DNA of 64,000 nt from Capniomyces stellatus. Taxonomy: Eukaryota; Kickxellomycota; Harpellomycetes; Harpellales; Legeriomycetaceae. The DNA lies in the NCBI GenBank assembly GCA_001661515.1, contig LUVW01000043.1, forward strand, positions 1-64,000, in the 5' to 3' direction. Position numbers and translations under genes: made by a program. Shown piece after piece: positions 24,788 to 58,260 of this stretch. The notes below the pieces were generated by a model. It worked only from the letters and a program-made list of their open reading frames with translations. It ran no database searches and was not told the origin of the DNA. Positions within the stretch are counted from its first letter, which is position 1; each line of letters opens with the position of its first letter.

Positions 24788-27700
24788 ATGAAAGTCGAAG
24801 AGTTGATTATTGATGGCTTCAAGTCGTATGCTTCAAGAACTCACATTAAGGGATGGGATGCTGAGTTTAATGCGATCACGGGGCTAAATGGATCGGGAAA
24901 GTCAAATGTATTGGATGCGTTCTGCTTTGTTTTGGGGATAAAAAACTATAAGTTGGTAGGTTTCAAATAAAGCAAAGAAGGATAAATGTAGATGAAGAGT
25001 TGAGCAATTGAGCTTTTGAAGGATATTGAATTAAAAATAAATAAATGAATATAGCTGCGTTCGAGTAATATTATGGATTTGATTTATAAAAGAGGTCAGG
25101 CAGGCATAACAAAAGCATCAGTTACAATCGTGTTTAACAACAATGACAAAAAAAACAGTCCACCTGGATACGATAGCTTTAAAGAGATATCGCTGACCAG
25201 ACAGGTAAGAGACATGAAAATTGTTGAAAAATACTAATGCGAGTTTTTTTTAAAAAAAAGAATAAAAAAGAAAGGGAGAGGGGAGTGGATGAGGAGGTGA
25301 GCAAGGGTTGAGGGGAAAGAAGAAAATAAATAAAGAAAACGGTAAATGGGAATAAATAGATCATGGTGGGCGGCAAGAGCAAATATATGATTAACGGCCA
25401 TAAAGCACAGGAGCAGACAGTGTCGAACATGTTGCAGGCGGTTCAGCTAAATATAAATAATCCGCACTTTTTGATTATGCAGGGAAAGATCACACAGGTG
25501 CTGAATATGCAGCCGATGGAGATTCTTTCGATGATAGAAGAGGCGGCAGGAACGAGAATGTTTGAAGATAGGAAGGATAAGGCGATAAAGACAATGTCAA
25601 AGAAGGACAAGAAGGTAGAAGAGATACAGGTGATATTGAAGGAAGAGATCACGCCGAAATTTGAGCGGCTTAGAACAGAGAAGCAGGCGTACTTGGAGTT
25701 TCAAAAGATGAATATGGAGTTTGATAGGCTGAGTAGGTTGGTGGTGGCATATGAGTATACGAGAAACGAGGAGCGGATGGAGAGCGATGAGCGGTCGCTT
25801 GAGAAGAACAAAGAGAACCAGGGAGAAAGCGAGGAGAAGACTGAGACACTGAAGCGGGAAATAGGCAACATCAACGCGGGAGTGGAAAAGATAATAAAAA
25901 AGAGAAAGAGTGAGATGTCGAATAACGGGGCGATAACAGGAAAGCAGGAGAAAGTGGACGAGCTGTCGAGGAATATAGCAAAGATCAAGGCGAAGCTTGA
26001 CATAGCAGAAAGCTCACTAGCGGAGGAAAAGGAGAGCGGAGAAACGATCAAAGAGACGATAAAAAAAGTGCAGGAGCAGTACAGCAAGGCAAAGGAGGAA
26101 GACGAGGAGGAGCAAGCAAAGTATAGTAGCAAAAAGGAAGAGTTGGGAAGGCAGACTTTGCAGGTAAGAAAGCTGGAGCAGCTGGTTCAGTCGCTGGCAA
26201 CAGGAGTGGCGGCAGACGAAGGAAGAGACGGAGGGTTTATGCAGCAGCTGACGGAAGCAAAGAACGAGGAGGCAGACAGCCGGACAACAATTGAGCAGAG
26301 CGAGGTGAAGAACCGGATGATGAAGCAGGAAGAAAAGGAGCTGAGAGGCAAGCTGTTGGCCGCACAGAGAAACGACGAGGGGTTGAACACGAAGAGAAAA
26401 GAGATTGAAGCACGAATAAATAGCACAAAGGCGGAAATCGAGAAGCTGGGCTACAACCAGCAACGCTACTTTGAAATAAGCAAAAAAAAGGAGGTCGGCC
26501 GAGCAGAAATCGACAGACTTGTGGACGAGGAAAGACGGATCAGCAGCCAAATGGGCGGAATGGAACTGCAGTACTCGGACCCTGAGGCTGGGTTTGACAG
26601 GCGGCGGGTCAAGGGCCCAGTGGCACAGCTGATAAGCATTGATGAAGGGCAGCTTGAGGCGGCCACGGCACTGGAGGTCTGTGCGGGAGGACGGCTATAC
26701 AACATAGTGGTTGACACTGACTCGACTGGAGCAAAGCTGCTGGAAAAGGGAAATCTGAAGAAAAGAGTCACTATTATCCCGCTAAACAAAATCTCGGCAC
26801 GCTCAGCAAGCGAGCAGATTGTGAGCAGGGCAAAGGAGATGACGCGCGGGAGAGCCAGTTTGGCGCTGTCGTTTATAGGATACCCAGACGAGGTCAAGAC
26901 AGCAATGGCCTATGTGTTTGGATCAACGCTGGTTTGTCAAGGTAAGAAGGTCATGATTGGCTTGACATTTGTTACTTTAAACTAAATATAATATCAACTA
27001 AATATAATATAATATCAACTAGATGCCGAGTCGGCCAAAATGGTAACTTTTGACAAGTCAATCAACCTCAAGTCGGTTACTTTGGACGGCGATGTTTACG
27101 ATCCGTCAGGGACGCTGCAGGGAGGGTCAAAGCCATCAAACTCGGGAATTCTGGCCAAGTTTGGCACGCTTGGGCAAGTCAGAAGGCGCTTGGACAAACA
27201 GCGGAGCGAGTACGCGCAGGTTGAGCAGCAGCTGAGGTCGCTTGCAAATATAAAGCAACGGTTTGAAGAGCTGAACAGCCAGTTGGACCTCGACAGCCAT
27301 GCGCTGGAGCTGGTGAAGGGCCAGCTGTCGACGAGTCCGTTTGCGCGAATCAGCAGGCGTCTGGAGGAGTTGGCGAAGGAAATGGCAGAGAATACCAAGG
27401 CTGTGGAGGAGGCTAGGGAAAGGGAAAAAAAGGCCAGGGAGATTGTAGGCAGCATTGAGCGGGAAATGGGAGAGTTTCTGCAGGACAAGGACGGGAAACT
27501 GGAGGAAATGAACGCAAGGCTGGGAAAACTGAGAAAACAGATGCCCAAACTCCAGGCCGAGGCCAAGCAGACGCAGAAAAGAGCGCAGGAGTCTCAGCTG
27601 GGCGTAGACGAGATCAAAGCAGAGCTGGACCAGCTGGACGAGCAGCTGGCAAACAACTCGGCGGCAACCAGCCAGCTCAACAAGGACAAAAACACCAACT

Positions 27701-28868
27701 TGCAGCTGATGGAACAGATGCAGGCACAGTTTGACGAGAGCTCAAAGGATCTGGCAAGTCTGCAAAGAGAGCTGTCGAGCTATAACAAGGAGCTTGGTGA
27801 GCTGGACGTGCTGGTGAAGAGGAAGCAGAACGACCTGGTGAACGAGCAGCTCAGGCACCAGCAGCTAGCCAGAGAGGTTGACCGCCTATCCACGGCATTT
27901 GAAAAGTCAAAGCACTACAACAAGAAAATGGTTGCCGAAAATGCCTGGATTACTGACCAGAAGTCCCAGTTTGGCCAGCCTGACAGTGCCTACGACTTTA
28001 TCAGGCAGGATCCGGTGTCCGCAAAACAGAATCTCGCCATCATAACCGACCGGCTGTCGTCACTGAGGAAAACAACAAACACATCTGTCCTAACCAACAT
28101 TGAAAGCGTTGAGAAACGCGAGTTGTCGCTCAAGCAAATGCTCAAAACTGTTCTCAAGGACAAGCGCAAAATCGACGACACAATATCCAGTCTCGACAAG
28201 TACAAGTCCGAAGCCCTCCACACCACCTGGAAAAAAGTCGACTTGGACTTTGGCGATATTTTTGCCGAACTGCTTCCTGGAAACACTGCCAAACTTGTTC
28301 CCCTTGACGGTATGGCTATCTCAAACGGTCTACAAGTCAAAGTCAACCTTGGCGGTGTTTGGAAAAACTCTTTGTCTGAACTTTCAGGAGGCCAACGGTA
28401 ACCCAATCAATTACCTTCTTGATTGTTTATTAAATTAACCAACTAACCTATTAGCCAATAAATCAACTAACTGATCACTTAATACATCCTATACTTTATT
28501 AGCTCCTTGATCGCTCTTTCTTTAATTCTTGCGTTGCTTCAGTTCAAACCCGCTCCCATGTACATTCTTGACGAAATCGATGCTGCTCTGGATCTTTCGC
28601 ATACCCAGAATATTGGCCGTCTGTTTAAGTCCAGGTTCAAGGGGTCTCAGTTCATTGTTGTGAGTCTTAAGGAGGGAATGTTTGCTAATGCCAATGTTTT
28701 GTTCCGTGTCAGATTCCGAAATGGTGTTTCTGCTGTTGATGTAAGTCTACTTTTGCCCTTACTCCTAAATTTGATTATGATTGTGCACAATTACACACGT
28801 TCTAATTGATAATCACCTCTCTGTATTACTCATAGACTATTGATCAACGAAACAGATCTATTCAATAA
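24788..28868 (+). CDS. SMC2: Condensin ATPase subunit SMC2
   Basis: Six exons, 24788..24955, 25055..25204, 25360..26941, 27023..28397, 28503..28740 and 28836..28868, encode about 1181 residues, the family's normal length. Exon 1 carries the N-terminal ATPase half with Walker [10 protein letters not shown] (residues about 32-40). Exon 2 has the conserved Lys-x-Gly-Gln-Ala-Gly-Ile segment. Exon 3 has the first coiled coil and the hinge (from about residue 520, Gly-Pro-Val-Ala-Gln-Leu). Exon 4 has the second coiled coil and the ABC signature LSGGQR, which is split by intron 4. Exon 5 has Walker B [11 protein letters not shown]. SMC2 pairs with SMC4 in condensin to compact mitotic chromosomes. 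Donors are GTAGGT, GTAAGA, GTAAGA, GTAACC and GTAAGT. The long exons are clearly more GC-rich than the flanks. Confidence 0.96.
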
Positions 28869-34823: not shown

Positions 34824-36473
34824 TCAAAGCTTGAGTGGTTTCAAGTGAATACCGCTATTTTTGTTAAAACTTGATGATATTATAAAGTGGTCGTATTTTT
34901 TGGACGGGTTTTGACTGTAGATTTCATAATTTCTTATTATAATCGCCATTATCATCTTCAGTATTGCAGCAGCATATTCTCTGGCTAAACACATTCTGGG
35001 ACCAGCACCCCAAACAAGATTTTCAAGAGACACATCTGCAAACTTGGTGTTTCGTTCAATGTGTCTTTTATAGTTAAACTCATTGGAATCCCTTCCAAAT
35101 ATTGATCTGTCTCGGCGTTGCGTAAATGAATTCATAGATACATAGCTTCCTTTGGGTAAGGATACCCCATTAGACAGCACCACATCTTTGACTGTGCACC
35201 TAGGAATGGCTCCTGTTGACCCTGACAATCTATTCGTCTCTTTAATTACAGCATCCAACACTACCATCTTGTCCAAATGGCTAAACTTGATGTTTTTTCC
35301 ATACTTTTTTACCAAGCATTTTTGCTCAAAAAGCACGTCTTTGTAGACATCTGGGCGCAACGCTATTTCCAACAAAAAGTTGTGCAGTCTGTTGGTGCAT
35401 ATCACAAGTCCGGCTTCCATGGATATTTGAATTACGTACGATATCAAATATGCATTGCTTAAATCAAATAAGCTCGGGTTTTCAGCCATAAATTGGACAA
35501 TATCTCGCGGTTTTGTGATCTGAGGGAAGAGTTTTCTCCTTCTAACCTCGATATCCAGATAGTAGGTGATATAGTTTGACCCTACAAGCCCATACTGGTA
35601 AAGCGACCTATTAAATGTATCGCCTACATACAATCCATGCGAGTTGTTGACAGACTTTTTAAGCGCTTCTCTCAACCTATTGTCTCTTATCGAGTCAATT
35701 CCAAAATACCTTATCGATAGCGCCACTGTCATTATTTCCTTAAAAAAGTCGTAAACTTTGTACAGCTCCACACCACCAACAGAGTCCTCCTTCCCGTTTG
35801 AATAAAAAGCCATTTCGATCTGCCTCTCTAGTAAATATTGGCATGACTCTATCGACTCGGCCAAATCCACTGTCGATGTGTAATATGCTATCAACCGCGC
35901 ATACTGCGAGTATTTTCCTATCACACCAACTAAAACTGAGTGAATAAGCGTGCTATGTTCTTTGTGTGATAATGCCTGGTTAAACACCGAGTCTGGAAAC
36001 GATATGTACTCTGTCACAAATGCACCGCCAATAACCACTCTATTGTCATTTTGGGAGTCATGGTATATGGTTCTGTTGAGTATCTGTATATCCCTATCGT
36101 CCTTTGACTTCTCAACGACCTCTTCATTGCTCAATTGGTATGTTTTTACTTTTTTTAATCCGTACGGCACAGCTATCTCTTTAATATATTCTCTTATTCC
36201 TGCTGTTAGTGTTTTGAAGAATGCATACCCAAGAATCGCTACCTTGAGTAGCACCAATGGTGTTCTATATGCTGCTACATACTCTTCTAAGCCCACAAAG
36301 CTGCCGTAAAAGTCGTAGTTCATTAGCAGCGCAATAATAAAGCACAGTATAAACTTGTTGTACTTGTATAAAGTCAACACCCCGATTATCGCAAACTTTG
36401 TAACCTTCAGTGAATGGATTGCCCGTATTGCCGACCTACATAAAATAAGCGCGTATCTTAAAATCAAATGCAT
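34824..36473 (-). CDS. Divergent cytochrome P450
   Basis: A single 549-codon exon from an ATG at 36473. The N-terminus has two hydrophobic membrane segments (about residues 25-50 and 65-90). The C-terminal half holds the P450 signature: an I-helix region, the K-helix E-x-x-R as Glu-Thr-Asn-Arg at about residue 412, and a PERF-like Phe-Asn-Tyr-Lys-Arg segment. The haem-binding loop is Trp-Gly-Ala-Gly-Pro-Arg-Met-Cys-Leu-Ala-Arg, with the axial Cys at about residue 495. The loop has Trp in place of the usual Phe and Leu-Ala-Arg in place of x-Gly-Arg, so it is a divergent member, but the catalytic Cys, Glu and Arg are intact. It would act at the ER as a monooxygenase. The substrate cannot be guessed. 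There is no biosynthetic gene cluster nearby. Confidence 0.88.
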   Translation of the reverse strand: MHLILRYALILCRSAIRAIHSLKVTKFAIIGVLTLYKYNKFILCFIIALLMNYDFYGSFVGLEEYVAAYRTPLVLLKVAILGYAFFKTLTAGIREYIKEIAVPYGLKKVKTYQLSNEEVVEKSKDDRDIQILNRTIYHDSQNDNRVVIGGAFVTEYISFPDSVFNQALSHKEHSTLIHSVLVGVIGKYSQYARLIAYYTSTVDLAESIESCQYLLERQIEMAFYSNGKEDSVGGVELYKVYDFFKEIMTVALSIRYFGIDSIRDNRLREALKKSVNNSHGLYVGDTFNRSLYQYGLVGSNYITYYLDIEVRRRKLFPQITKPRDIVQFMAENPSLFDLSNAYLISYVIQISMEAGLVICTNRLHNFLLEIALRPDVYKDVLFEQKCLVKKYGKNIKFSHLDKMVVLDAVIKETNRLSGSTGAIPRCTVKDVVLSNGVSLPKGSYVSMNSFTQRRDRSIFGRDSNEFNYKRHIERNTKFADVSLENLVWGAGPRMCLAREYAAAILKMIMAIIIRNYEIYSQNPSKKYDHFIISSSFNKNSGIHLKPLKL

Positions 36474-38086
36474 TGCTGATGTTATCTATCTTTTCGAGTA
36501 ACTACACGGCTTTAATTGGTGTCAACAGTCACTGAAACAAGACTGCTCTGGATATTAATATACTTGAGCTGGACAGATACAGAAATAAAGGGTATATAGA
36601 CGTAGTCCTTGAGGCTTATATTACAAAACGCTGACAAACTGGCCAAATTCAGTTAGTGCGAGGTTCCGTTTGCTTGTTTTTTTTTGCTAGGTTATTGCTA
36701 TTCTTGGCTGATATCTTGGGAAATAGCTGGGTTTGTATGTTAGTGGACTGTGGAAACCGAAATATAAACCTTTGTTTGTTTTTAAAATAAAAAAATGTAT
36801 TGAAATTAAATGTAATAAGAAGAGCAATAATGAACTTGTGCTGTTTTTATCAAGTTAAATGCGATTGATTAGCGAAATTAATCTTAAATTTTTTTTTTAC
36901 TAGCTTTTTATTTCGTTTCATATAGCTAGCGATTTTTTTACAAACCTTGCTATTTTCTTGACTTATTAGTAAAGTTGTCAATTTGGTTATTTCGAGTTAA
37001 TTACTACATGCTTTTATTAGCAAAGAAACAATTTTCAGTCAACACTTGGAATTACCCTCATTGTAAAACTAAAACTAGGTTAGTGAACTCTGTTACTCTG
37101 TTGAACAGCAATGATGTTACTGGGAATAGTCTGAATAATTCAAAGGATACTTGTCATTGGACTGAGCTTTGGTTATTGCTATTTCTAAAACCTTTTTAAG
37201 CCATTCTACAGGACTGAACTTAATTTTTGGTGTAGAAAGGAGTCGATATTACGATCTTCATCTAGAATTATAATTCTGATAATGCCGATAGTCAACTTCA
37301 GGAAGACCTCGCCACTTTGGCTATTTTCCCTTGCAACCACCAATTTCACTATGTAGAATAAATAATTGACCAAGTTTTTAATAATTAATGTTTTAAATCC
37401 AACTTTTTTTATTCAAGGGAATGAATTAATATTTTTTATCAACAATCAGAACAAATGAAATATGCCTACAAAACTAAAATATTGTTTGAAAGTTACAAAT
37501 CGCCAGCTAATATATTGATCTAAGGTTTTCAATTGATGCTAAATATTCAAACTACTTTTGTAAATTATTGATCAAAAAGGAAAAAAATGTAGGAAATCAC
37601 GAATAAAATAGCTCAACTCGAACTATTTAGGTGTAATGTAGTTGCCAATTAGCTATTAAACTTTGTTAAATCAACAATAAAATCAAAAAAATAGCTCCTT
37701 TCTACAACTGACTTGATTAATAGCGGTGAACTGTACACTCTTTTTTTAGGCGTAATGTTTTGAATCCCCTTTATAACCGCAGCAATTTACCCGGGTTGCA
37801 TTCAATTAATCTAAATCGAGATCACAGATATTGAATATTTACCTAACCATATATGACTAAATCACCTAAACGAACAGAATCAATTGAGTTGATATGCATA
37901 GCACAGTTTTACTCGTGCGCCAACAACGCTTTGCTGTCTCAAATGACTCACCAAACAGAAGCTACTAATATATCTATTCCTTGCATAAAACCAACTGTAG
38001 CCACATATACAAAAATCGTAACTATATTTCAATTTTATTTTGGCGACGTAATTGATTTGTAAGTATGGATTCTTAAAATTTTATCT
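36474..38086. other. 1.6-kb intergenic region
   Basis: P450 promoter side at the left. The rest is very AT-rich with no supported gene up to the tRNA pair. Confidence 0.45.
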
Positions 38087-46694: not shown

Positions 46695-49600
46695 CTAGTG
46701 ACCAGAGTTTTCAGTATTGATAATGGGGTCTATATCAAAGCCAAAGTCGTGGCTAAAATTTAGGTTGGATTTCTGAACAACCCGAGTGTACCTACCACCG
46801 ATTCCTGAAAGCCTCCTGTTGCAGCCATTGGTGGTGGTGGTGGTGGTGTTGTTGATGCTGGTGCCAATAGTCAAGCCAGACCTTTGTAACGGAGAGGGAA
46901 TTGGGGCATTAGAGGTGGTGGGTTTGGTTGGAGTAGTTGGGAGTGACTGGACAGCTGTGTGGTTTCCAGTGCTGCTATAAACATTATTCTCATCATTAAC
47001 GAGATCACTAGGCAACTTTGTAGATTGTGTAGTTGATAGAGGCTGATGGTTAGCTGCCAGACTGACTGTTTTTGGCGGTTGGTAGTTTAAGTTCAACATG
47101 GCTGCGTTGGGCAGGTATAAGGAGTCTGAAATAATAGATCTTCGCTTGGTTCGATGGAACACCGGGGTTTTGATGGGTGGTGGGAGTGGTTGCGGAAGCA
47201 GACCAGGAGCTGATGAAAGCCTGGAAACGCGTGATAAACGAGATTTGTTCAAGTCTGCCCCTGCAAAGCCATTTTCACCTTGGTTCGCAAGGCTGCTGTT
47301 CCTAGTATCTCTGCCTGCACCCGAGTGGTTTTGCAAAAACGGATGCAGTTGGCTGGAGGAACTTGGCTGGTTTAAGCCACTCATGCTATTAGTCCGGCTG
47401 GCCAGTTTGGAGCTGGTAGAGCTTGAGTAGCTGTCCCAGTTGGCAGATTTTAGGCTGTTGGAGAGCTGCTTGTCCCTCTGCCGGTTCGCACTGTACTTGG
47501 TGCCGCTCGCACTGGTCAGGATAGGAAGAAGTACTTCGCTTTTGAACTTGTGGATCAAGCCAACAGGCATCCGACTGTTTCTCCTCCGGCCAATTCCTTT
47601 GTTAGGCGACATGTTTGCGTCCAGAATATCATAACTGTTGCTCAGGCTTTTGCGGCCTTTTCCAGCCACCCCAATCCCAGATCCAGACCCAGATCCAGAC
47701 CCAGCACCAGACCCAAATCCAATTACTAAACCCCCTGCTGCCGAGGCATTGTTCAGGTTGGTGGAGAAAGCCTGTTTTCTGTTCAACAAGCCTTCTCTCT
47801 TGCCCAACACTCCCCCATCCAACCCTTTGCTGTTTGTTGTTGGCAAATGACTACCATAAGCCAGTACCTCCCGCTCCTTCAACTGCGGGTTGTACCTGGC
47901 CAGCTTTCTTGGAGCCAACAAAACATAATCTGGACTCGAGCTGGAACCCAGTCCTAATCCCAGTCCCAGCCCTAATCCCAAGTTGAAGTTTGATTTGGCC
48001 TTGGGTTTGGACTTGGAATTGAGACTGTGACTGTTGCTGTGACTGTTGCTGTGATCAAGACTGAGGCTCGAGTCCAGACCCTGCTTGAAAAAAGGGTTTG
48101 TATACCCCAGCTCCTGGGCCGAAAGCCTGGCCTTTACTGATTTGTGGTGTCTGTTTAGGTCTCTGTTTGGCGAAACAAGTAGTTGTGTTGGGTTCATTTC
48201 ATCGTCAATGTCCAGCCTTCTTGGTGTCCGCTTTCTTTTGGCACTTGAAGCTGTTCCCGGCCTTTTGCAATCTCCTATACGATCTCCACTACCATGAGCA
48301 TCGCTATTGACGCCAACATTGCTGCTGTTATCTACAACCCCGTCTGCTGAGCCAGCCCTTGCTTTGGCATTCGCGACCTCGGCTCTATAGTAAGACTCTG
48401 GTGTATTACTGGAGTCTGCATTGCCGCCTTCATCACCCAGCTTGTACCCCTTCGGCATCACCAGCCCATTTCGCTCACAAAACAACTCTATCAGGTCCCC
48501 CAACTTCCCACCAAACCTCAGCACCTCCTTGCTACCTAAAAACATCTCTGTGATGTCATAGTCTTGGCTCTTGACATCTTTACTCAATCCCTGAATCGAT
48601 GAATAGACTATCAACTGGTCAATGTAAAATGAAACATTCTCAAACAGATGGTCGCTGTTTGAAGCCAAGTCAATCCACTCTGCCGTCATTTGCTCGATTT
48701 CAGACCTGCTGTACATCGTTGATATGTACCAAAAATGCACCAATATTTGCATTTTGCACCTACATTCCCAGTACAATCAACGTTGCAGTTAGTCAACCAG
48801 TTGGTTTATATGCTCAAAATCTACAAATAAAGAATATCAAAAAAAAAAATAAAAAAATAAGGGGTTTTAATGTGCCCACAACTTACTCATGAATTGTCAA
48901 ATCATTGACGATGTCTTTTAAAACACTCCCATGTTTCTCGGCACTTTCAGAAACCGTTAGCGTGGCACAATCAAAACTGCTCTGAATCTGGTGCGCTCTT
49001 TTGGACTTGAAATTGCCTTCGTTACCAAGTGCAAGCCCTCGATTTTGGCCCTGTTCAAACAGACCAAGATAAGCCGACTCGAATTCTTCTGATTTGAACA
49101 AAATTTGGGACTTGATCACTTGCTCCATCTCAGCCTTGTTTTTGCTCTCGCTATACAGTCTATCCAGGTGATCCAGTCCAAAATCCTCGCCAACCATCCG
49201 GCTTTGTGTACTTACAAAACCACTAGTAGCAGCCAGTTTTCCAATATAGAACTCGTTGAGCCAGTCGTCAAAATTGTCGATTTCAGGGATCGCCTTACTC
49301 ATCGGAATACTGCCGCAGCAGCTTTTTGGATCAATACTTTGGCCCAGGCTCGGGCTGAATAACTGAATGCTTGTGTCTTTGTCTACCAGCATTTCTGAAC
49401 TTACCGAAATACCATCCAATTCAAACGAATTCTCACAATCGTTTATAACCAAATCGTCATTGTCTATAATCATTTGATTTTCCACATCGTAACCGTCATA
49501 GTCTAAAAAGCTGTCTAAACTGTCACCATCCCCAAATCTATTTTCATAATCAGTGTCGATATCGTACTCATTCCCAATTGTGAATTTGGATTTGGCTCTT

Positions 49601-52600
49601 TCATTTTTTCCCATTACTCCCAACTTCCTTAATTGGAACCTCTCGTTTATCAGCCTCATTCTGTCTTCAATTCCTCCAAAACTATCTTTGCTTTCCACCT
49701 GAGCATCGCTTTTTAGCAGCAAATCCAGCCCAATATTAGCACTGATTTCACCACCCTCTAACAAACCTTGCTCTTTCACCAACAAATAGCCAAACTTTTC
49801 CAAGAATCTATTTTCTACCACAATTCTGGCTTTAGACCCAAAATCTTCATGCCTCAGCTCAAACAAATTTTTGTTTGTAACAACCACTCTGTACAGATGG
49901 TTGCTAATAGGAACTAAAATAACAACTTTTGCTGCCTTTCCCAAACCATCTCGATCCTCTTTAAACGCAAACCCCTCAACTTCAGCAACCAAACTGCACT
50001 TGGCGTCAAGAGTGCCACTTAATCCAGCTAAACTCATTAGATCGTTGCCTAGCCCCAAATCCACCACCCATTCTGTCTCTACATACTCTGTACTCTCTGC
50101 CGCCTCTTCATACAAATTACTCTTGCTGAACCCCTTTAACCAAAGTCTAACCTCCTTGTCTCCAGCCCCTGAATCAAACGCACCGTTATTGACTACCTTC
50201 AACGCTTGCCAGTTTCTGGCCATTGCCAGCTCTTTTGCCTCAAACACCAAATCCTCAACCCTCACCTCTTTGCTACTCAAACACTCGGTAATCCTATTTA
50301 AACATCGCAACCACAAACAAAGTTTCAATATCGCAGCAGTACTAATCCCACCCAACCACCACTCGATCAAATATGCATCCTACCCTTTGCTAAACATCAA
50401 TGCGCGATCTCCAGTCTTCAGCTCCTTGTAATAAACACTGCCCACTGTAGCTCCATTGTATTGGCTTTTAGCCTCGTTTATCTCTGCCATCAGGCTCCAC
50501 ATAAACTCTCCTCTCTTGTCGTTTAAGCCCGAATCAACCTTGGGTTTCACAGCAGCACTGGTATCGCTGAACACGCCTGATTTTCTTGCCTTTGATTTGG
50601 CATTAAACATATTTGCTTGCGCTGCCAAGCTCCCAACCCCCGACCTTGCCATTTCTTTGTACGCACTGTACCCTTCAGAGCCAAGTCCCGCTTTTACCTG
50701 GCCCTTTCTATAAACCAGCTCTGTGAAGCTACTCTGCATGATTTCATTTATCTGCCAAAAACTCCCATTCAGCCTTTTAAAACACATCTTGCCCACTGAA
50801 AAACATATTTCCTTTTCAATCTACACCAAACACCATCCAAAAGCATTCACCACCTACATTACTACTTCTAACCCTCCTAGATATCTATACTTGCCTATTG
50901 ATCATCACAACATATATTTTCAAATCCGTGAGTTTACCTTATCTTTCAGCTCCTTTTGGAGATCCTGTCCATCTGTTTCCCTTGTTTTCAATCCCTCCAG
51001 ATCAATCCAGTTAACCACCGTCTGCCGCTGCCTATAATTCTGGCCAATTCCTCCCCCAACCAGCTCCTCATAAACATTTCCAAGCTGCTCAACCAAATCT
51101 GTACCTATTACTATCTGCTCAATACTGTTCAAACTATCTAGACCCTCTCCGTCCCCACCCACCACAAACCTGCTGTTTTTGCTATTATACGTATAGCCTA
51201 TTTCGTTCTGAATTTCTTTGGCTCTACTCTTTTCTTTTTCTTTTTCATTGTCCTTTTCTTTCTCTTTTTCTTTTTCTTTTGGCTTGGCTCCTACAAACTT
51301 GTTTAGTGCTTTTGTGTTTTTTGGAAACTTTCCTATTATAAAAAGCGCATTTTGGTTTTCTTGGCCATTCAAACTTCCGAATAGACTATTTAAACTGTCC
51401 CCAACTCCAGCACACCCACCACCATTGCTATTGATACTGCCGTTACCACTGCCACCGCCAAAGCTCATGTTCAGGTTCGTGTAGCTACTATTTAGTGAAT
51501 TTATCCTACTACTTGATCCGTTTTGCACATCGTCTCTGCCAAGCACCATTGTCCGCCTCCTGTTTTTTTCGTTTATGCCATCAGGCGTCAATATCTCATT
51601 TCCCACTCCCAGCCTCCTGTTTGCTCCATTTCCAACCAACATTTCTCCTCCTATGCTTGCCCGCGATCGCATCTTGCTTTTCTTGACTACCTCCTCTAGC
51701 TTTTTGTTTCCCTTAAACTCCAGCTTCTCCAGCTGAACCTCCCAATCCACATCAGACTCCAGTCTCATCAACAACGCTTTCAAAACCTTCAGCTTTGCTC
51801 CTCTTGGTGGTCTGTCAACTGATAAGTAGGTTGTCACCCCATTGCCGCCGCTTTTGCTACCCTCAGTACTTTTTTTCTCCCTATCTTCATCTCTTTGCCC
51901 CGCAGTTACCAACTCCCCACTCTCTCTGTCCTTTGGTCTACTTTTTGAACCATGCATTCCGCTATCCACCGTCCTGCTGCTGTTGGCTCCTCTAGTTCTA
52001 CCTCCGCTCTGTTGAACCTCTGTGCTACCAATATCAATATAAACCTTTTCGCCCTCATTTTTGACCTGCTTCCCAACACCCTTCCTTGGGTCAGACGGTA
52101 ACCCAGAGCCCTCCCTCGTCTCCTTTTGGCCACCAGTTTCTGTGCTACAATCTTTTGTCTTGGGTTTGTAAGTCTTCACTTGGTTTCTCAGCTCCTCGAA
52201 AAATATCTCAATGTTTCTTTTGCTAATCGAAATTCGTCTCTTCTCTACCTTTTGCTGTCTATTCCTCAACCCCTTATTCTCTTCACCCCGACTCCGTGTT
52301 CTTTTATCTTGTCCTACCTCCTCCACATTCCCATTTCCATTCTTGTTGCTTGACAAACCATCATCGTCTAGCAAAACCTTTTTTCCAGCTTGCGTGCTGA
52401 AAAAACTGTAATTCCACGTTGCATTCCTGCTAATGTTCTTCTTGTACTCGACCAAAACCTTTGTTACAGCCGCTTTGATTGACAGAATTGTTTTTTCATA
52501 GAGCTTATCGTACTCCTTAACTAGTTTATTGTGGTACTCGAGCTTTTGTATCTGCCGCTTTAGCTGCTGCTGCTTTTGTGCCTCATACCTTTTCAATTTT

Positions 52601-52909
52601 GCTTGATCCTCAGTCTTACTCTTTCCATTTCCGTCCTGTTGTTGGCCAACTGCCTGTGTTAGCTCGTTCTTTTTTCTTGTACTGGTTATCCTTAAATTGT
52701 TCAAAACCGCAAACTCGGAAAAAACTGTTTCAATATCCACTAAAAAGTACAAATGAGGTTGGATCCCGTACACCTCTCCAATCATTTCAACTACCCTCTT
52801 TCCTCTATGTTGAACTATCCGGACCTGATTCTCATTTATTCGCACTTTTCGCTGTTCAATCAAAACCAACCAATCTATACTCTGAACTAGATAGTCTACA
52901 ATTCTACAG
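46695..52909 (-). CDS. Treslin/TICRR-Sld3-like DNA replication initiation factor (5' end unresolved)
   Basis: At least four exons join in phase: about 52909..50938, 50820..50384, 50293..48887 and 48759..46695. They give roughly 1960 residues, close to human TICRR (about 1900). The N-terminal part resembles Treslin's vWA-like domain: a hydrophobic strand, Asp-Trp-Leu-Val-Leu-Ile, then a helix and Ile-Gln-Pro-His-Leu-Tyr-Phe-Leu. Later comes Asn-Ala-Leu-Phe-Ile-Ile-Gly-Lys-Phe-Pro-Lys-Asn. The Sld3-Treslin domain spans about 49280-48440, with Glu-Cys-Lys-Met-Gln-Ile-Leu created exactly at the last splice and closing at Gly-Leu-Val-Met-Pro-Lys-Gly. Ser/Thr-Pro sites follow, including Arg-Thr-Pro-Arg-Arg (48215-48229), in a 500-residue disordered tail. 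Treslin/Sld3 loads Cdc45 onto MCM when CDK-phosphorylated. A Lys-Glu repeat and long Ser/Gly inserts interrupt the vWA-like region. The start exon upstream of 52909 is not found. Assignment is by pattern, not search. Confidence 0.65.
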
Positions 52910-53724: not shown

Positions 53725-56391
53725 TCATCCTAGTCGTTTGTTGATATGTCGTTCGAGATACATTCTTGTGGAAAGACCTCTATGCTCGTTTTCCAACTGG
53801 ATGTTGCTGACATGGTCGTATAGTTCCTGGTGGTTGAGGTCTAGTGACCGCTTGGCCACGTTGCAGAAAAAATGAGGGGTGGGAACAACGCTTAAATCCT
53901 TCATTTGGCCCAGCATCCGCAAAACCCGAGTGTGGAAACCAAAGTTGGATCCGGTGAAGAGCGCATTGCCTGACTCGGTGCCAAATGCAGCACCTACACC
54001 TGCATCAGCACCAAAGCTCGGAGTTGGAGTATGGAAAATAGAATTGGAGAGCTTGGAGACCAGGTCGTCTAGAACAGACCTCTCCTGGATCTCTGACTCT
54101 ATGGAGCTAATGAGCCTGAAATACGAATAAAACATGCCGAGCCTTGTCAGCTCTTTTGTTCTCACTGGAAGGTCCCTGTTAAGACTGGCTAAGTCGTCGC
54201 CAAGTCTGTCCCAAAAATCCATTCCAAACGCGTAATACCTGCTCTCGGTGATTATATCAAGAATAATCGAAACTGTAAAGCTGCTGGGGTAAATTGAGTT
54301 TGACCGGCTCAAGTCCATCAAACCAGCTCTAAAGAACCCATCCCACCAGCTAACAATGTCCTCCACACTAACCGTGCCGCCTCTCCTCCGAGACTGCAGA
54401 TAACTGTTGAGCACAAACACGTTTACATGTGTTTTTCTAGACTCCAGACACGCTGCTGCCCTTGATAAGGATGGCTGCTCCGCGACTTCTCTGAGAGCTG
54501 TTATAACAAATGGTTCCGGTTCCGAGGAGTCGAATCTGTGGATGTGTGGAAGCAAGACCGAAACAATCCTATTGTTAAACACATCTATTTTCCTTTCGAT
54601 GCACAAATCCAGCACACTGGCTACCTGATCCCTCGTTGGTTGGCCAAAAAACTTTCGCTCGCTGGTGCTTTCGGCAAACTGGTGAAGTATCCTGTGTAAG
54701 TAAAATGTTGCCTCTCTGGGAGTCAAGATATCGGTGGTTGCTATTAGGCCAGCTACATCCCCTTCTGCGCCATCTACGCTCCCGTGCCTACTTTCACTTT
54801 CGGATTCACGCTCAACTCCATGGCTGTACTTGTAGTCTTGAGTTGAGTCTGCACTGTACAGCCCAAGATTAAACGCCTTTATTCTGTAAATCTTGTCCAG
54901 CAAGTGACTATCGCTAGAGTATCTAATCTGCCCAACCAACTCGCGCAGATCTTCTTTGGTCCTGCTAAGCATTTCCAAGTGCTCCACAAAAGCCTTCTTG
55001 GACTGCTGCGGGAAGGTGGCCAAAATAAATTCCAACAGCTTTTTTGACTGCGAGTTTTGAAGCAAACTCGACATAGTTGAGCACAGCGCCGACAAAGTAA
55101 ACCCATTCGCTTTAACCCCTTGGCTCATCAAAGCCTCAAACTCCCTTAAGCACATCTTGGCCAACTCCTCCAATCTGTTCTTTCCTGCTCGTCCTGAAAC
55201 AGCTGTTGCAAACGACTCGGTTTTATCCCTAGCATACACATTCTGAATTCCATTGAACAGCCCCTTGCACAACAAGTCGCTTGTCTGGTTATTATTTCTG
55301 CTTTTTGCTTCACCGTAATAGTAAACAACGCTATCCGCGTCTCTTATTTTCCCGTAATATGCCATCAGCCAGTACATGTCTTTATCCCCAAGCCTCGACC
55401 GCTTCCCCTCCGCTGCTTCCAAAACGCTTTCTATGTTTTCTGTGACTGTTTGTACACTGGTTGGCAACTGCGCATAATGCTGCAGCAGTGCCCCTGTCAC
55501 CAAATTAAAGCTTTTTTCAACCCTATTTGAACTCTTCAACACTGCCCTGTATATCACATTCACAAAGTTGTGACAGTTTAACTTGCTCGCTGCCAAAATC
55601 AAACTATGGTAGCTGTGCATCGTTAGCTTTACATCGTGACTCTTCTCCAACACCCCAAAATTATCAACTATTTTGGCCAGATACACCTCATCGTTCCTGT
55701 GCTTACTCGAAACATACTTTTGAATACATTGTGAAATACCGTCAGTGTTATTACTTCCTGTCTTGCTCCGTATTCCCATCAACTTTGAATTCAGATTTAC
55801 AGAGACAACCATAACCAAGCACATAAATATCTCTTCCGACACTTGTTTAGCCTCCAAGTCATACACTTTGGATTTGGCAGGCAAATACTGCGTTTTTACT
55901 TTATTAAGCAGCAGATCTAACCTCTCTCCGCTCATAACCTCCAACATTCTCAGCAGCTCGATATTTCTCTGCTTGTCAAAACTGGCTTTGCCTCTACTCC
56001 CATTTGTCCCCACACTGTTAATACTTTTCTTTCCTGTTTTTTGTAATATCATCGTGTCTTTCCAAGCTCGAAACAACCGCCGCTTGTCTCTATCCCTAAT
56101 TGATTCGTTTATTCCACACAGCCGTTCTTTTGCCTCATAGTAATCGTATATCATTAGCCGCGTTTCGTCATTTCTACTATTTACATATTTAAAACACTCG
56201 CTCGTTATAGATCTTTTGCCTTCTGTTTTCCCGATCAGCACAATCCGTGATTTAGTCACAGCTACCGCCTTTATCGCCTCAACACTTTGTGTCTTTGTGC
56301 TCCAAATACTATTAAAATCCCGCCTGATCCTTAGCATCATGGCTCGACTTGGATTTCTGCCAGACTTTTTAATAGTAAAAGCCAGCACCAT
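53725..56391 (-). CDS. Putative mitochondrial PPR-like helical-repeat protein
   Basis: A single 888-codon exon from the ATG at 56391. The N-terminus (Met-Val-Leu-Ala-Phe-Thr-Ile-Lys-Lys-Ser-Gly-Arg-Asn...) is basic and lacks acids for about 20 residues, as mitochondrial presequences do. The body is alpha-helical, with repeating helix pairs spaced about 35 residues in places. Examples are Met-His-Ser-Tyr-His-Ser-Leu-Ile-Leu-Ala-Ala-Ser-Lys, Met-Tyr-Trp-Leu-Met-Ala-Tyr-Tyr-Gly-Lys and Gly-Phe-Thr-Leu-Ser-Ala-Leu-Cys. These look like degenerate pentatricopeptide repeats, as in fungal mitochondrial RNA-processing and translation factors. An acidic low-complexity spacer (about bases 54750-54830) interrupts the repeats. 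The specific target is unknown. Confidence 0.6.
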   Translation of the reverse strand: MVLAFTIKKSGRNPSRAMMLRIRRDFNSIWSTKTQSVEAIKAVAVTKSRIVLIGKTEGKRSITSECFKYVNSRNDETRLMIYDYYEAKERLCGINESIRDRDKRRLFRAWKDTMILQKTGKKSINSVGTNGSRGKASFDKQRNIELLRMLEVMSGERLDLLLNKVKTQYLPAKSKVYDLEAKQVSEEIFMCLVMVVSVNLNSKLMGIRSKTGSNNTDGISQCIQKYVSSKHRNDEVYLAKIVDNFGVLEKSHDVKLTMHSYHSLILAASKLNCHNFVNVIYRAVLKSSNRVEKSFNLVTGALLQHYAQLPTSVQTVTENIESVLEAAEGKRSRLGDKDMYWLMAYYGKIRDADSVVYYYGEAKSRNNNQTSDLLCKGLFNGIQNVYARDKTESFATAVSGRAGKNRLEELAKMCLREFEALMSQGVKANGFTLSALCSTMSSLLQNSQSKKLLEFILATFPQQSKKAFVEHLEMLSRTKEDLRELVGQIRYSSDSHLLDKIYRIKAFNLGLYSADSTQDYKYSHGVERESESESRHGSVDGAEGDVAGLIATTDILTPREATFYLHRILHQFAESTSERKFFGQPTRDQVASVLDLCIERKIDVFNNRIVSVLLPHIHRFDSSEPEPFVITALREVAEQPSLSRAAACLESRKTHVNVFVLNSYLQSRRRGGTVSVEDIVSWWDGFFRAGLMDLSRSNSIYPSSFTVSIILDIITESRYYAFGMDFWDRLGDDLASLNRDLPVRTKELTRLGMFYSYFRLISSIESEIQERSVLDDLVSKLSNSIFHTPTPSFGADAGVGAAFGTESGNALFTGSNFGFHTRVLRMLGQMKDLSVVPTPHFFCNVAKRSLDLNHQELYDHVSNIQLENEHRGLSTRMYLERHINKRLG

Positions 56392-57036
56392 AGTAGGCTA
56401 TACTTGTTTTTTTCTTTACTTTAGCCCTTCCAATTGTTCTCTCGCTTACTTCAAGTATAGCACCACTTGTTCGATCCCAAAAATGTTTACCTACTGGTTT
56501 TAATACCAAAAACGTGTGTTCTGCCAGTTAATCAAACTAATCAAAATAAACTGTTTCTCGTTTTTTTTTTACCATAATTCATTCTTTTTTTTTATCTTGC
56601 TTTTTTTAATCAATTAAAGCCAATTTTACGCTGGAATTTCGACCAATTTACCACTAATGAAACTTGCTAATCTGCACGAATTTCGTCGCAATTTAATCTA
56701 TTACAATTCAATCAAATTGAGTAGATATAACTCAATCCAGATTCAGCCCTGAAGATTATGTTCAAATTCAATGTTTATGCTTTCTTTCAGCTCTTTTATC
56801 ACAAACTCTTTTCAATTAACATTCAACATGCTTTTTATTTTGTAATTCTGCGTTTTAAATCTTGGTTGTAGTGCTTTTATACAATTATTCATCAAGTAAA
56901 CGTTATCACTAGCGGCATTTATACTGCATTCTGTTTGTTTTTATAAACCAAATTCACCAGATTTACTATTGAGTGATAAACTAGGACTGCCGAGTAAAAT
57001 ATAGCTACCGAGTAAGATTATATAGCCATTACAAGC
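56392..57036. other. Divergent promoter region
   Basis: Lies between the helical-repeat gene and D-amino-acid oxidase 1, transcribed away from each other. AT-rich with several T9-T10 runs. No element recognised. Confidence 0.45.
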
Positions 57037-58260
57037 ATGGAGCAAAACTGCAATCCCAGCAAAAGTAAAAGAAAAATCGTTGTGCTTGGCGCTGGTGTGA
57101 CAGGGCTGACAACAGCGTTGGTACTGCAGCAATCGAATCAATTTGATGTTTTGATTGTTTCAGAGCATATAGTAACCACGCCCAAAAGGTCGGAGAAAAC
57201 AAAGGTTGTGAGCGGGTACGAGTATAACGATCCAGCTACGGTCCCACCTTTGCAAATGGCCTCCCCCTACGCAGGCGCTCACTGGCGCTCACTAGCACAA
57301 TTAGATGACACCTTTATGCAGAGTTGTGAAGCTGCTACGTACAATAAGCTGTTTGCTTTGGCAACGGGATCACCTGAATCTGGTGCTAAAGTGGTTCAAG
57401 GACTCGATCTGTATACCACAGACAAAGTCCACAATGATTGGTACTCTGGCCTGGTTAAAGAGTTTAGAATACTGGATGACAATGAGCTGCCAGAGGGTAT
57501 TAAGCATGGCGCTACTTACAAAACCCTGATCATCAACACGCCAGCATACCTGCTGTGGTTATACAACAGTTTTACAGGTATTGGTGGCGGGTTTGTTAAT
57601 GCCAAGGTTGATAGCTTGCGCGATTTAGAAAAACATGCGGTAGTCCATTTTGCTGCAAAAAGTGCAAAAAGTGAAAGCAATAGTGTAAACAGCAATGGTG
57701 ACAGGTTTTTACAGTTTCAGGATAACGAGCTGACGATTGTTAACTGCTCGGCGCTAGGAAGCGCGAAGCTTTTAGACGTAAAAGACCGCGGTATGTACCC
57801 AATCCGAGGCCAGGTTGTTTTAGTTTGGGCTCCTCAAGTTGAACAAACAATCACCAAAATCGGTGGCAAATACATGAGCTATGTCATTCCACGTGGCAAC
57901 GGCACTGTTATTCTTGGCGGAACCCATCAGGGATATGATACAAACACAGTCCCTGATGACAAAACGACTCGGTATATACTTGAAAATACCATTTTGTTGG
58001 CACCCGAGCTTGTCAAAGACTACAATGGAAACTCGTTTGCTTCAAACATTGAGGAGTTGGAAAAGAAAATACTGGACGTTAAGGTCGGATTCAGACCAGG
58101 AAGGGTAGGCGGTGCCAGAATTGAGGCTGATAAGATATTTGGCGGGGCGGGGAATAGAATCAAAGTTATCCACAACTATGGACATAACGGATTTGGATAC
58201 CAAACTAGCTGGGGCTATGCAAACGAGGTTTACAAGATGTTGCAAGCCAACAAACTGTGA
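57037..58260 (+). CDS. D-amino-acid oxidase family flavoprotein, paralog 1
   Basis: A single exon of 407 codons. FAD-binding Rossmann motif Val-Val-Leu-Gly-Ala-Gly-Val-Thr-Gly-Leu (about residues 14-23). Further blocks are Ala-Ser-Pro-Tyr-Ala-Gly-Ala-His-Trp, the substrate-side Val-Gly-Phe-Arg-Pro-Gly-Arg-x-Gly-Gly-x-Arg-Ile-Glu, and the family signature Ile-His-Asn-Tyr-Gly-His-Asn-Gly-Phe-Gly-Tyr-Gln-x-Ser-Trp-Gly. The enzyme oxidatively deaminates D-amino acids (or D-aspartate) with FAD, releasing the keto acid, ammonia and peroxide. It ends in Asn-Lys-Leu, a weak variant of the peroxisomal PTS1; the two neighbours end in Ser-Lys-Leu. It carries a longer N-terminus and an insert with Ser/Asn repeats near residue 215. 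It converges with paralog 2. Confidence 0.92.
   Translation: MEQNCNPSKSKRKIVVLGAGVTGLTTALVLQQSNQFDVLIVSEHIVTTPKRSEKTKVVSGYEYNDPATVPPLQMASPYAGAHWRSLAQLDDTFMQSCEAATYNKLFALATGSPESGAKVVQGLDLYTTDKVHNDWYSGLVKEFRILDDNELPEGIKHGATYKTLIINTPAYLLWLYNSFTGIGGGFVNAKVDSLRDLEKHAVVHFAAKSAKSESNSVNSNGDRFLQFQDNELTIVNCSALGSAKLLDVKDRGMYPIRGQVVLVWAPQVEQTITKIGGKYMSYVIPRGNGTVILGGTHQGYDTNTVPDDKTTRYILENTILLAPELVKDYNGNSFASNIEELEKKILDVKVGFRPGRVGGARIEADKIFGGAGNRIKVIHNYGHNGFGYQTSWGYANEVYKMLQANKL

What the first reader, a model, noticed from the sequence alone, without database searches (positions are those of the whole stretch)
46695..52909. A Treslin/Sld3-like replication initiator with animal-type N-terminal region in a fungal genome
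Seen: four stretches that look like separate unknown genes join by GT-AG introns in consistent phase. The last junction creates Glu-Cys-Lys-Met-Gln-Ile-Leu, at the place where Treslin's Sld3-Treslin domain has Glu-Cys-x-[Leu/Met]-Gln-[Val/Ile]. Upstream, an Asn-Ala-[Leu/Val]-Phe-[Ile/Leu]-x-x-x-x-Pro block recalls Treslin's vWA-like region. Known: yeast Sld3 is short and largely lacks that region, while animal TICRR has it and is about 1900 residues. Inference: this fungus keeps an ancestral long form, with Ser/Thr-Pro sites after the core and large low-complexity insertions that would hide it from simple searches.
Basis: partly seen in the sequence, partly recalled or inferred. Interest (0 to 1): 0.75.

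Follow-up and report, generated by a model that had tools for sequence, protein, structure and literature searches.

The report
Animal-type Treslin in a gut fungus
A fungus related to insect-gut fungi carries a long gene that looks like the animal DNA-replication starter protein Treslin, including a front domain that has been reported as absent from fungi, so it seems that not all fungi lost that domain.

Summary
Four minus-strand pieces (52785-50938, 50820-50384, 50293-48887, 48759-46695) join by three GT-AG introns into one 1918-residue protein. The genome is fungal; its RPB2 branches beside Furculomyces and Smittium (Harpellales).

Pfam, BLASTP and profile searches find nothing significant, because low-complexity insertions cut the domains apart. 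After removing them by a rule blind to Treslin, the N-terminal part matches the human Treslin CIT (vWA-like) domain far above chance: 0 of 1000 shuffles at each of three gap settings (z 5.2 to 6.8), and above all 207 decoys (120 of them RPB2 proteins). MTBP and Ku70 score at background there. The Sld3-Treslin domain is supported weakly (8 of 8 references positive, z 1.3 to 3.3), yet better than the accepted human-yeast pair in the same kind of test. The middle (M) domain is not supported statistically. Two CDK-consensus sites follow the core.

Best reading: a Treslin-type origin-firing factor that keeps the CIT domain reported as absent from fungi (PMC8807876). It is a new member of a known kind. 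Splicing, fold and function are unproven; structure predictions were uninformative.

The parts
50938..52785 (-). exon 1: start codon and most of the CIT (vWA-like) region with low-complexity insertions, Q1-616
   Evidence: open frame, best codon score of six frames; TICRR CIT match 0 of 1000 shuffles at each of three settings; decoy control
52372..52416 (-). CIT block WNYSFFSTQ.. (Q124-138), aligned to human Treslin 45-59 WAFKFFDSQ..
   Evidence: MAFFT pairs W45 with Q124 and F49 with Q128 in 5 of 8 set-ups
52168..52227 (-). CIT block ..FFEELRNQ.. (Q187-206), aligned to human 68-87 ..DFEEELEAR..
   Evidence: 5 of 8 MAFFT set-ups
51739..51819 (-). CIT block ..KLKVLKALLMRLESDVDWE (Q323-349), aligned to human 88-114
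   Evidence: register of this block differs in the profile runs
51286..51354 (-). CIT block QNALFIIGKFPKNTKALNKFVGA (Q478-500), aligned to human 151-173 [23 protein letters not shown]
   Evidence: in 42 and 67 to Q494, where the blind segment ends; 8 of 8 MAFFT set-ups
50998..51027 (-). CIT block RQTVVNWIDL (Q587-596), aligned to human RKITFYWVD(T)
   Evidence: 2 of 8 MAFFT set-ups
50821..50937 (-). intron 1, 117 nt, GT-AG, phase 0
50384..50820 (-). exon 2: end of the CIT region, Q617 to the first two bases of Q762
50294..50383 (-). intron 2, 90 nt, GT-AG, phase 2
48887..50293 (-). exon 3: proposed M region and first part of the STD
49849..50163 (-). proposed M (Ku70-like barrel) region, about Q806-910; VRLWLKG resembles human VRIFLKG, and SLVAEVE human HLVADVD
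   Evidence: motifs and spacing only; not significant by shuffling
48760..48886 (-). intron 3, 127 nt, GT-AG, phase 2; branch-like CTAAC 33 nt before its end; competing acceptor at 48821 would truncate the protein
46695..48759 (-). exon 4: rest of the STD, then a long polar low-complexity tail and the stop codon
48444..48957 (-). STD core Q1208-1336 (interrupted by intron 3), with ECKMQIL at Q1231-1237
48162..48227 (-). two full CDK-consensus sites, TPRR (Q1409) and SPNR (Q1427), in TDIN-like position after the STD
   Evidence: 4 [ST]Px[KR] sites in Q1337-1918 against 0.9 expected, p 0.009 (tested after I had seen the sites)

Best explanation
This is a Treslin/TICRR-type origin-firing factor of a Harpellales-related fungus. 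It is one 1918-residue protein with an N-terminal CIT (vWA-like) domain, a probable M region, the Sld3-Treslin domain, and a polar tail that starts with two CDK sites. By analogy with Treslin and Sld3 (inferred, not shown here), the M region would bind an MTBP/Sld7-like partner. The STD would bring Cdc45 to the MCM double hexamer. CDK phosphorylation of the tail would create binding sites for a TopBP1/Dpb11 BRCT protein, which completes the pre-initiation complex in S phase. The CIT is an inherited ancestral domain of unknown activity, here split by long low-complexity insertions.
For: CIT: Q CIT segments, cut out by a composition rule blind to Treslin, score 58, 62 and 96 at three gap settings against human Treslin 1-262; shuffles reached this in 0 of 1000 each time, and in 0 of 400 at two settings. 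8 of 9 Treslin references (human and eight other vertebrates) gave 0 of 150; P0101 gave 9 of 150. 0 of 207 decoys reached the 61.5 of exon 1; best decoy 51.5; 120 of the 207 are RPB2 proteins, so they are not independent. Uncompacted Q gave 0 of 300 at three settings. MAFFT places human W45 and F49 on Q124 and Q128 in 5 of 8 set-ups, and human 152 and 159 on Q479 and Q486 in 8 of 8. STD: the best local hhalign match of the vertebrate STD profile in Q is the ECKMQIL helix (P 0.063), while the known homologue yeast Sld3 gets P 0.098 at its equivalent; 8 of 8 references have positive z. Q1-1336 segments against Treslin 1-800: 0 to 3 of 80 shuffles over 8 references. CDK sites: 4 against 0.9 expected. 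Coding frames. Fungal: 16 Fungal_trans matches, RPB2 tree 100/99 with Furculomyces and Smittium. CDC45 is present. Exon 1 has no second match in the assembly at E<=0.01.
Against: No Pfam match to any Treslin or Sld3 family at a cut-off of E 10. Plain BLASTP of human Treslin against exon 1 is not significant: best 22.7 bits, E 0.16, in low-complexity sequence; the CIT blocks appear only as pieces of 18.9 and 17.7 bits. Human Treslin against the whole genome gave nothing. A homologue search with the M-STD part found nothing at E<=1 among 7992 scored candidates, although Smittium and Furculomyces proteins are in that database. hmmsearch with vertebrate profiles was not significant, nor hhalign for the CIT (P 0.19). 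Whole-length chaining was weak: 2 to 159 of 200 local shuffles and 13 to 144 of 200 full shuffles reached the real score over five gap settings. The vertebrate-profile version of the CIT test was weak at stiff gap costs (36/500, 8/500) and better at soft ones (1/500, 1/500). Yeast Sld3 against the Q STD was not significant (83/400, 193/400). The M domain is not significant in any test. Single-sequence AlphaFold models have mean pLDDT 32 and 39; the exon 1 model is nearly all helix and coil, not vWA. Splicing is inferred; the acceptor at 48821 could truncate the protein.
Confidence: 0.87

Rival explanations
1. It is the MTBP/Sld7-type partner, which in animals has the same vWA plus Ku-like barrel order (PMC8807876), and not Treslin.
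For: Shared domain order in animals (PMC8807876, passages). MTBP 1-440 against the Q CIT+M segments is weakly positive, 24/400 and 34/400 shuffles.
Against: MTBP 1-262 against the Q CIT is at background, 309/400 and 350/400, where Treslin gives 0/400. The test would not find a remote MTBP: human Treslin against human MTBP is itself at background (192/400, 391/400). But Q is far closer to Treslin than Treslin is to MTBP. The STD-like helix and CDK sites follow. No MTBP_N or MTBP_C match in the genome, though those searches are insensitive.
Confidence: 0.04
2. It is a generic or Ku-type vWA protein, with no special relation to Treslin.
For: vWA domains are common and diverse; Ku70 shares the vWA plus barrel order (PMC8807876).
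Against: Ku70 34-265 is at background on the same segments (37/200, 49/200, 95/200). Pfam finds no vWA or Ku family.
Confidence: 0.03
3. A fast-evolving low-complexity fungal protein with no real relationship; the motif matches are chance.
For: No database tool gives a significant hit.
Against: 0 of 1000 shuffles and 0 of 207 decoys reach the CIT score. The STD motif lies downstream in the right order.
Confidence: 0.06
4. Two or more separate genes: exon 1 is one gene, exons 3-4 another.
For: No RNA data; introns 1 and 2 lack a CTRAY branch site.
Against: All three introns keep the frame, the joined reading has no internal stop, and the order CIT then STD matches Treslin.
Confidence: 0.06

Closest known systems
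Treslin/TICRR of animals (Pfam Treslin_N, Treslin_M, Treslin_STD)
   Same: Order CIT, M region, STD, CDK sites; total length 1918 against 1909; CIT similarity significant
   Different: About 24% identity over the aligned CIT (41 of 172); long low-complexity insertions within the CIT; no Pfam match
Sld3 of yeast (Pfam Sld3_N, Sld3_STD)
   Same: STD helix (SREIKLQILLLLEI against IHECKMQILVHFWY); CDK sites after it; both fungal
   Different: Yeast Sld3 is 668 residues (PDB chain); the CIT is reported as not present in fungi (PMC8807876); no Pfam Sld3 match here
MTBP (animal Sld7)
   Same: vWA plus Ku-like barrel order reported in PMC8807876
   Different: Sequence at background against the CIT
Ku70
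   Same: vWA plus barrel order reported in PMC8807876
   Different: Sequence at background

Membership tests
Treslin/TICRR | N-terminal CIT (vWA-like) domain related to animal Treslin | tested here: met
   0 of 1000 shuffles at each of three gap settings; 8 of 9 references 0/150, one (P0101) 9/150; 0 of 207 decoys; weaker with a vertebrate profile. Sequence only; fold not shown
Treslin/TICRR | M domain, Ku70-like barrel | tested here: inconclusive
   VRLWLKG and SLVAEVE motifs at a spacing of 50 (human 51), but 31 to 193 of 200 shuffles reach the score over 8 references; model pLDDT 32
Treslin/TICRR and Sld3 | Sld3-Treslin domain (STD) | tested here: inconclusive
   8 of 8 vertebrate references positive, z 1.3 to 3.3 with 1 to 19 of 200 shuffles reaching; same register from the yeast and vertebrate hhalign runs but P 0.06 to 0.07; against yeast alone 83/400 and 193/400
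Treslin/TICRR and Sld3 | two CDK sites after the STD that bind TopBP1/Dpb11 (TDIN) | tested here: inconclusive
   TPRR and SPNR 18 residues apart; CDK sites enriched, p 0.009, tested after seeing them; binding not testable
Treslin/TICRR | match to Pfam Treslin_N, Treslin_M or Treslin_STD above cut-off | tested here: not met
   Control: the accepted orthologue yeast Sld3 also gives no match to these models, so this tests closeness to animals rather than membership
Sld3 | match to Pfam Sld3_STD or Sld3_N | tested here: not met
   human Treslin also gives no match to these
MTBP/Sld7 | similarity to the MTBP N-terminal vWA | tested here: not met
   309/400 and 350/400
Ku70/Ku80 | similarity to the Ku70 vWA or barrel | tested here: not met
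   vWA 37/200, 49/200, 95/200; barrel 109/200, 117/200, 86/200
Treslin/TICRR and Sld3 | required for origin firing, binds Cdc45, MTBP/Sld7 and TopBP1/Dpb11 | not testable with these tools
   needs experiments

The most novel reading that the evidence does not exclude
Kickxellomycotina, and perhaps other early-diverging fungi, keep a full animal/plant-type Treslin with its vWA (CIT) domain. The loss inferred from yeast then happened inside Fungi, and a simple fungus could reveal what the CIT does. The domain also tolerates several insertions of roughly 35 to 115 residues.
Probability: 0.7. Interest if true: 0.5.

Novelty: new member of a known kind. Interest (0 to 1): 0.45.

Why it matters
[quoted passage not shown] A fungal Treslin that keeps it would show that the loss was not shared by all fungi, and would bring the unknown role of this domain into a simpler organism. 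It also shows how low-complexity insertions can hide a replication gene from routine annotation.

Tried and rejected
Pfam on the whole protein and on pieces: no Treslin or Sld3 family (one meaningless Atrophin-1 match in exon 1, E 4.3). Pfam families against the whole genome: nothing for Sld3_STD, Treslin_M, Treslin_STD, Treslin_N, MTBP_N, MTBP_C. PDB sequence search of the M-STD part: one irrelevant chain, E 0.25; human Treslin itself has no match in that copy of the PDB at E<=0.001. Homologue search with the M-STD part: nothing. hmmsearch and whole-length chaining with vertebrate profiles: weak or not significant. Full-length vertebrate alignments as input for structure prediction: MAFFT spread the fragments over the whole protein, so A1 and A2 were not used. 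AlphaFold without an alignment: pLDDT 32 and 39, judged meaningless, so no fold search was run. A first decoy set of 60 wrongly contained exon 1 itself, which explains its one z of 8.7 (filter failure found, exon 1 scored apart); one search repeats the control with 207 decoys and the gene's own four pieces set aside. MTBP and Ku70 as rivals: background.

Several gap settings, references and segment choices were tried; I report the weak ones with the strong ones. The CIT result with single BLOSUM62 references is stronger than with my vertebrate profile, so the exact z should not be over-read.

Papers: PMC8807876, passages only; PMC6377148, passages only; the others seen as search listings only. 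No title or abstract start in the listings (open-licence PMC papers only) mentions a CIT in fungi; (TICRR with Kickxellomycotina) returned 0 papers. Sanchez-Pulido 2010 was not read and is known here only through PMC8807876.

An earlier count gave the start codon as 52787; the correct first base is 52785.
Full report
WHAT IS THERE. On the minus strand, four open stretches (685, 146, 498 and 693 codons) join through three GT-AG introns of 117, 90 and 127 nt into one frame. From the ATG at 52785 the protein (called Q) has 1918 residues and ends with the TAG at 46697-46695. In each exon the proposed frame has the best codon score of six, using two RNA-polymerase second-subunit genes of the same genome as the standard. 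The 189 bases upstream of the ATG score as non-coding, and no upstream ATG runs into exon 1 without a stop; a tiny spliced 5' exon cannot be excluded. Exon 1 has no second match in the assembly at E<=0.01.

SPLICING CAVEAT. Intron 3 carries a CTAAC branch-like site 33 nt before its end at 48760, but a more pyrimidine-rich acceptor ends at 48821. Its use would add two residues and a stop just before the STD motif. Introns 1 and 2 have no CTRAY site. RNA data are needed.

THE ORGANISM. The genome has 24.5 Mb in 59 contigs and holds 16 matches to Fungal_trans, best 3.6e-21. Its RPB2 (973 residues held) is 84-85% identical to Furculomyces boomerangus and three Smittium species, the four best hits of 120 listed. 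In a tree of 26 RPB2 rows (25 chosen from the 120 listed, plus this genome) it is sister to Furculomyces plus Smittium with support 100/99, and these join Coemansia with 100/100. Furculomyces is placed in Harpellales, Kickxellomycotina. So the fungal claim holds, and the lineage is Harpellales or close to it.

DIRECT SEARCHES FAIL. Pfam finds no family for the joined protein at a cut-off of E 10, and for the pieces only one meaningless match (Atrophin-1, E 4.3, exon 1). The genome searches with Sld3_STD, Treslin_M, Treslin_STD and Treslin_N are empty; the 14 control genomes, which are prokaryotes, did not ring either. Human Treslin against the genome is empty, with no first-look candidate, and BLASTP against exon 1 is not significant. 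A search of 5.8 billion proteins with the M-STD part gave none at E<=1 among 7992 scored, limited to proteins of about 660-2100 residues. As a control, human Treslin hits only the Treslin models and yeast Sld3 only the Sld3 models, so these models do not connect even the accepted orthologues.

TEST OF THE CIT. Q was reduced to its hydrophobic segments by a rule that does not look at Treslin: seven segments, 318 residues, for Q1-664. Aligned to human Treslin 1-262 with BLOSUM62 the score is 58, 62 or 96 at three gap settings, and 0 of 1000 segment-wise shuffles reach it each time (also 0/400 twice). Of nine Treslin references eight gave 0/150; the shrew record P0101 gave 9/150. Without compaction, 0/300 at three settings. 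Of 207 decoys (other frames of the window and of fetched loci, 120 RPB2 proteins, later parts of Treslin) the best scored 51.5 and the largest z was 4.6, against 61.5 and 6.6 for exon 1; with 120 RPB2 rows they are not independent. The alignment pairs W45-FF49 with W124-FF128, DFEEEL with [17 protein letters not shown] with QNALFIIGKFP, and FYWVD with VNWID; 41 of 172 aligned residues are identical. MAFFT puts human W45 and F49 on Q124 and Q128 in five of eight set-ups, and human 152 and 159 on Q479 and Q486 in all eight.

WEAKER VERSIONS. With my vertebrate profile instead of single sequences the same test gives 36/500, 8/500, 1/500 and 1/500 at four gap settings, and permuting the order of the segments reaches the real score in 34, 41, 6 and 1 of 300. 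A rotated segment order keeps the score of 58 at the stiffest gaps, so there the signal comes from one stretch, and the order of all segments adds evidence only at softer gap costs. Whole-length chaining was weak. Vertebrate-profile hmmsearch was not significant; for the CIT it ranked Q second of 202 sequences, at Q477-527, the expected place; for the M domain Q had no match. hhalign for the CIT gave P 0.19 at the same place.

RIVALS. MTBP shares the vWA plus barrel order with Treslin (PMC8807876). MTBP 1-262 gives 309/400 and 350/400 on the same segments, and Ku70 37/200, 49/200 and 95/200. Human Treslin against human MTBP is at background in the same test (192/400, 391/400), so the test sees only fairly close kin; Q is such kin to Treslin and not to the other two.

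STD, M AND TAIL. The best hhalign match of the vertebrate STD in Q is the stretch with TIHECKMQILVHF (P 0.063); yeast Sld3 gets P 0.098 at SREIKLQILLLLE; yeast Sld3 against Q gives the same register (P 0.069). By shuffling, eight vertebrate references give z 1.3 to 3.3 with 1 to 19 of 200 shuffles reaching, while the accepted human-yeast pair gives 121/400 and 145/400 and yeast against Q 83/400 and 193/400. The M region shows VRLWLKG (human VRIFLKG) and SLVAEVE (human HLVADVD) at a spacing of 50 (human 51), but no shuffle test supports it; I noticed this by eye. After the STD, S/T-P dipeptides are not enriched (8 against 7.5), but full CDK sites are (4 against 0.9, p 0.009, tested after I had seen them), two of them 18 residues apart soon after the core.

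STRUCTURE. Only contiguous window stretches could be folded, without an alignment: mean pLDDT 32 for the M fragment and 39 for exon 1, the latter nearly all helix and coil. These say nothing for the vWA fold.

MECHANISM. From Treslin and Sld3 (PMC8807876 passages): the M domain binds MTBP/Sld7, the STD of Sld3 binds Cdc45, and CDK sites in the TDIN bind TopBP1/Dpb11. I infer the same here. CDC45 is present in the genome, about 190 kb away on the same contig. The activity of the CIT is unknown; [quoted passage not shown]

VERDICT. It is a new member of a known family, in a kingdom where that domain is reported as absent. Open points are splicing, the M domain, the fold, and whether other fungi share it; none of these could be settled with the tools left.

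Noticed in passing
window 48821 (minus strand): A pyrimidine-rich acceptor inside intron 3 competes with the 48760 acceptor; its use would add two residues and a stop just before the STD motif. Possible regulated splicing.
   Followed up: partly
window 53725-56397 (minus): 890-codon single open frame directly upstream of the gene, with no Pfam family above cut-off (weak DUF7124, E 0.059).
   Followed up: no
window 25360-28401 (plus): Two neighbouring open frames; the first holds an SMC hinge domain (E 4e-20), the second has no Pfam match at E 0.001. Probably an SMC gene with a short intron.
   Followed up: no
window 13541-16471 (minus), 11822-13165 (plus), 34824-36485 (minus), 57016-58260 (plus): Ordinary neighbours: kelch-repeat protein, CwfJ-like splicing factor, cytochrome P450, FAD-dependent oxidoreductase.
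   Followed up: no
L004, L005, L006 (contig C23, 781-797 kb): Three Fungal_trans matches with nearly equal scores within 16 kb, in two orientations; two of them are each listed in an open frame of 2110 aa, perhaps the same frame. Looks like a recent local duplication.
   Followed up: no
window 47700-48000 (minus): In-frame simple repeats coding LGLGLGLG and GSGSGSG runs in exon 4.
   Followed up: no
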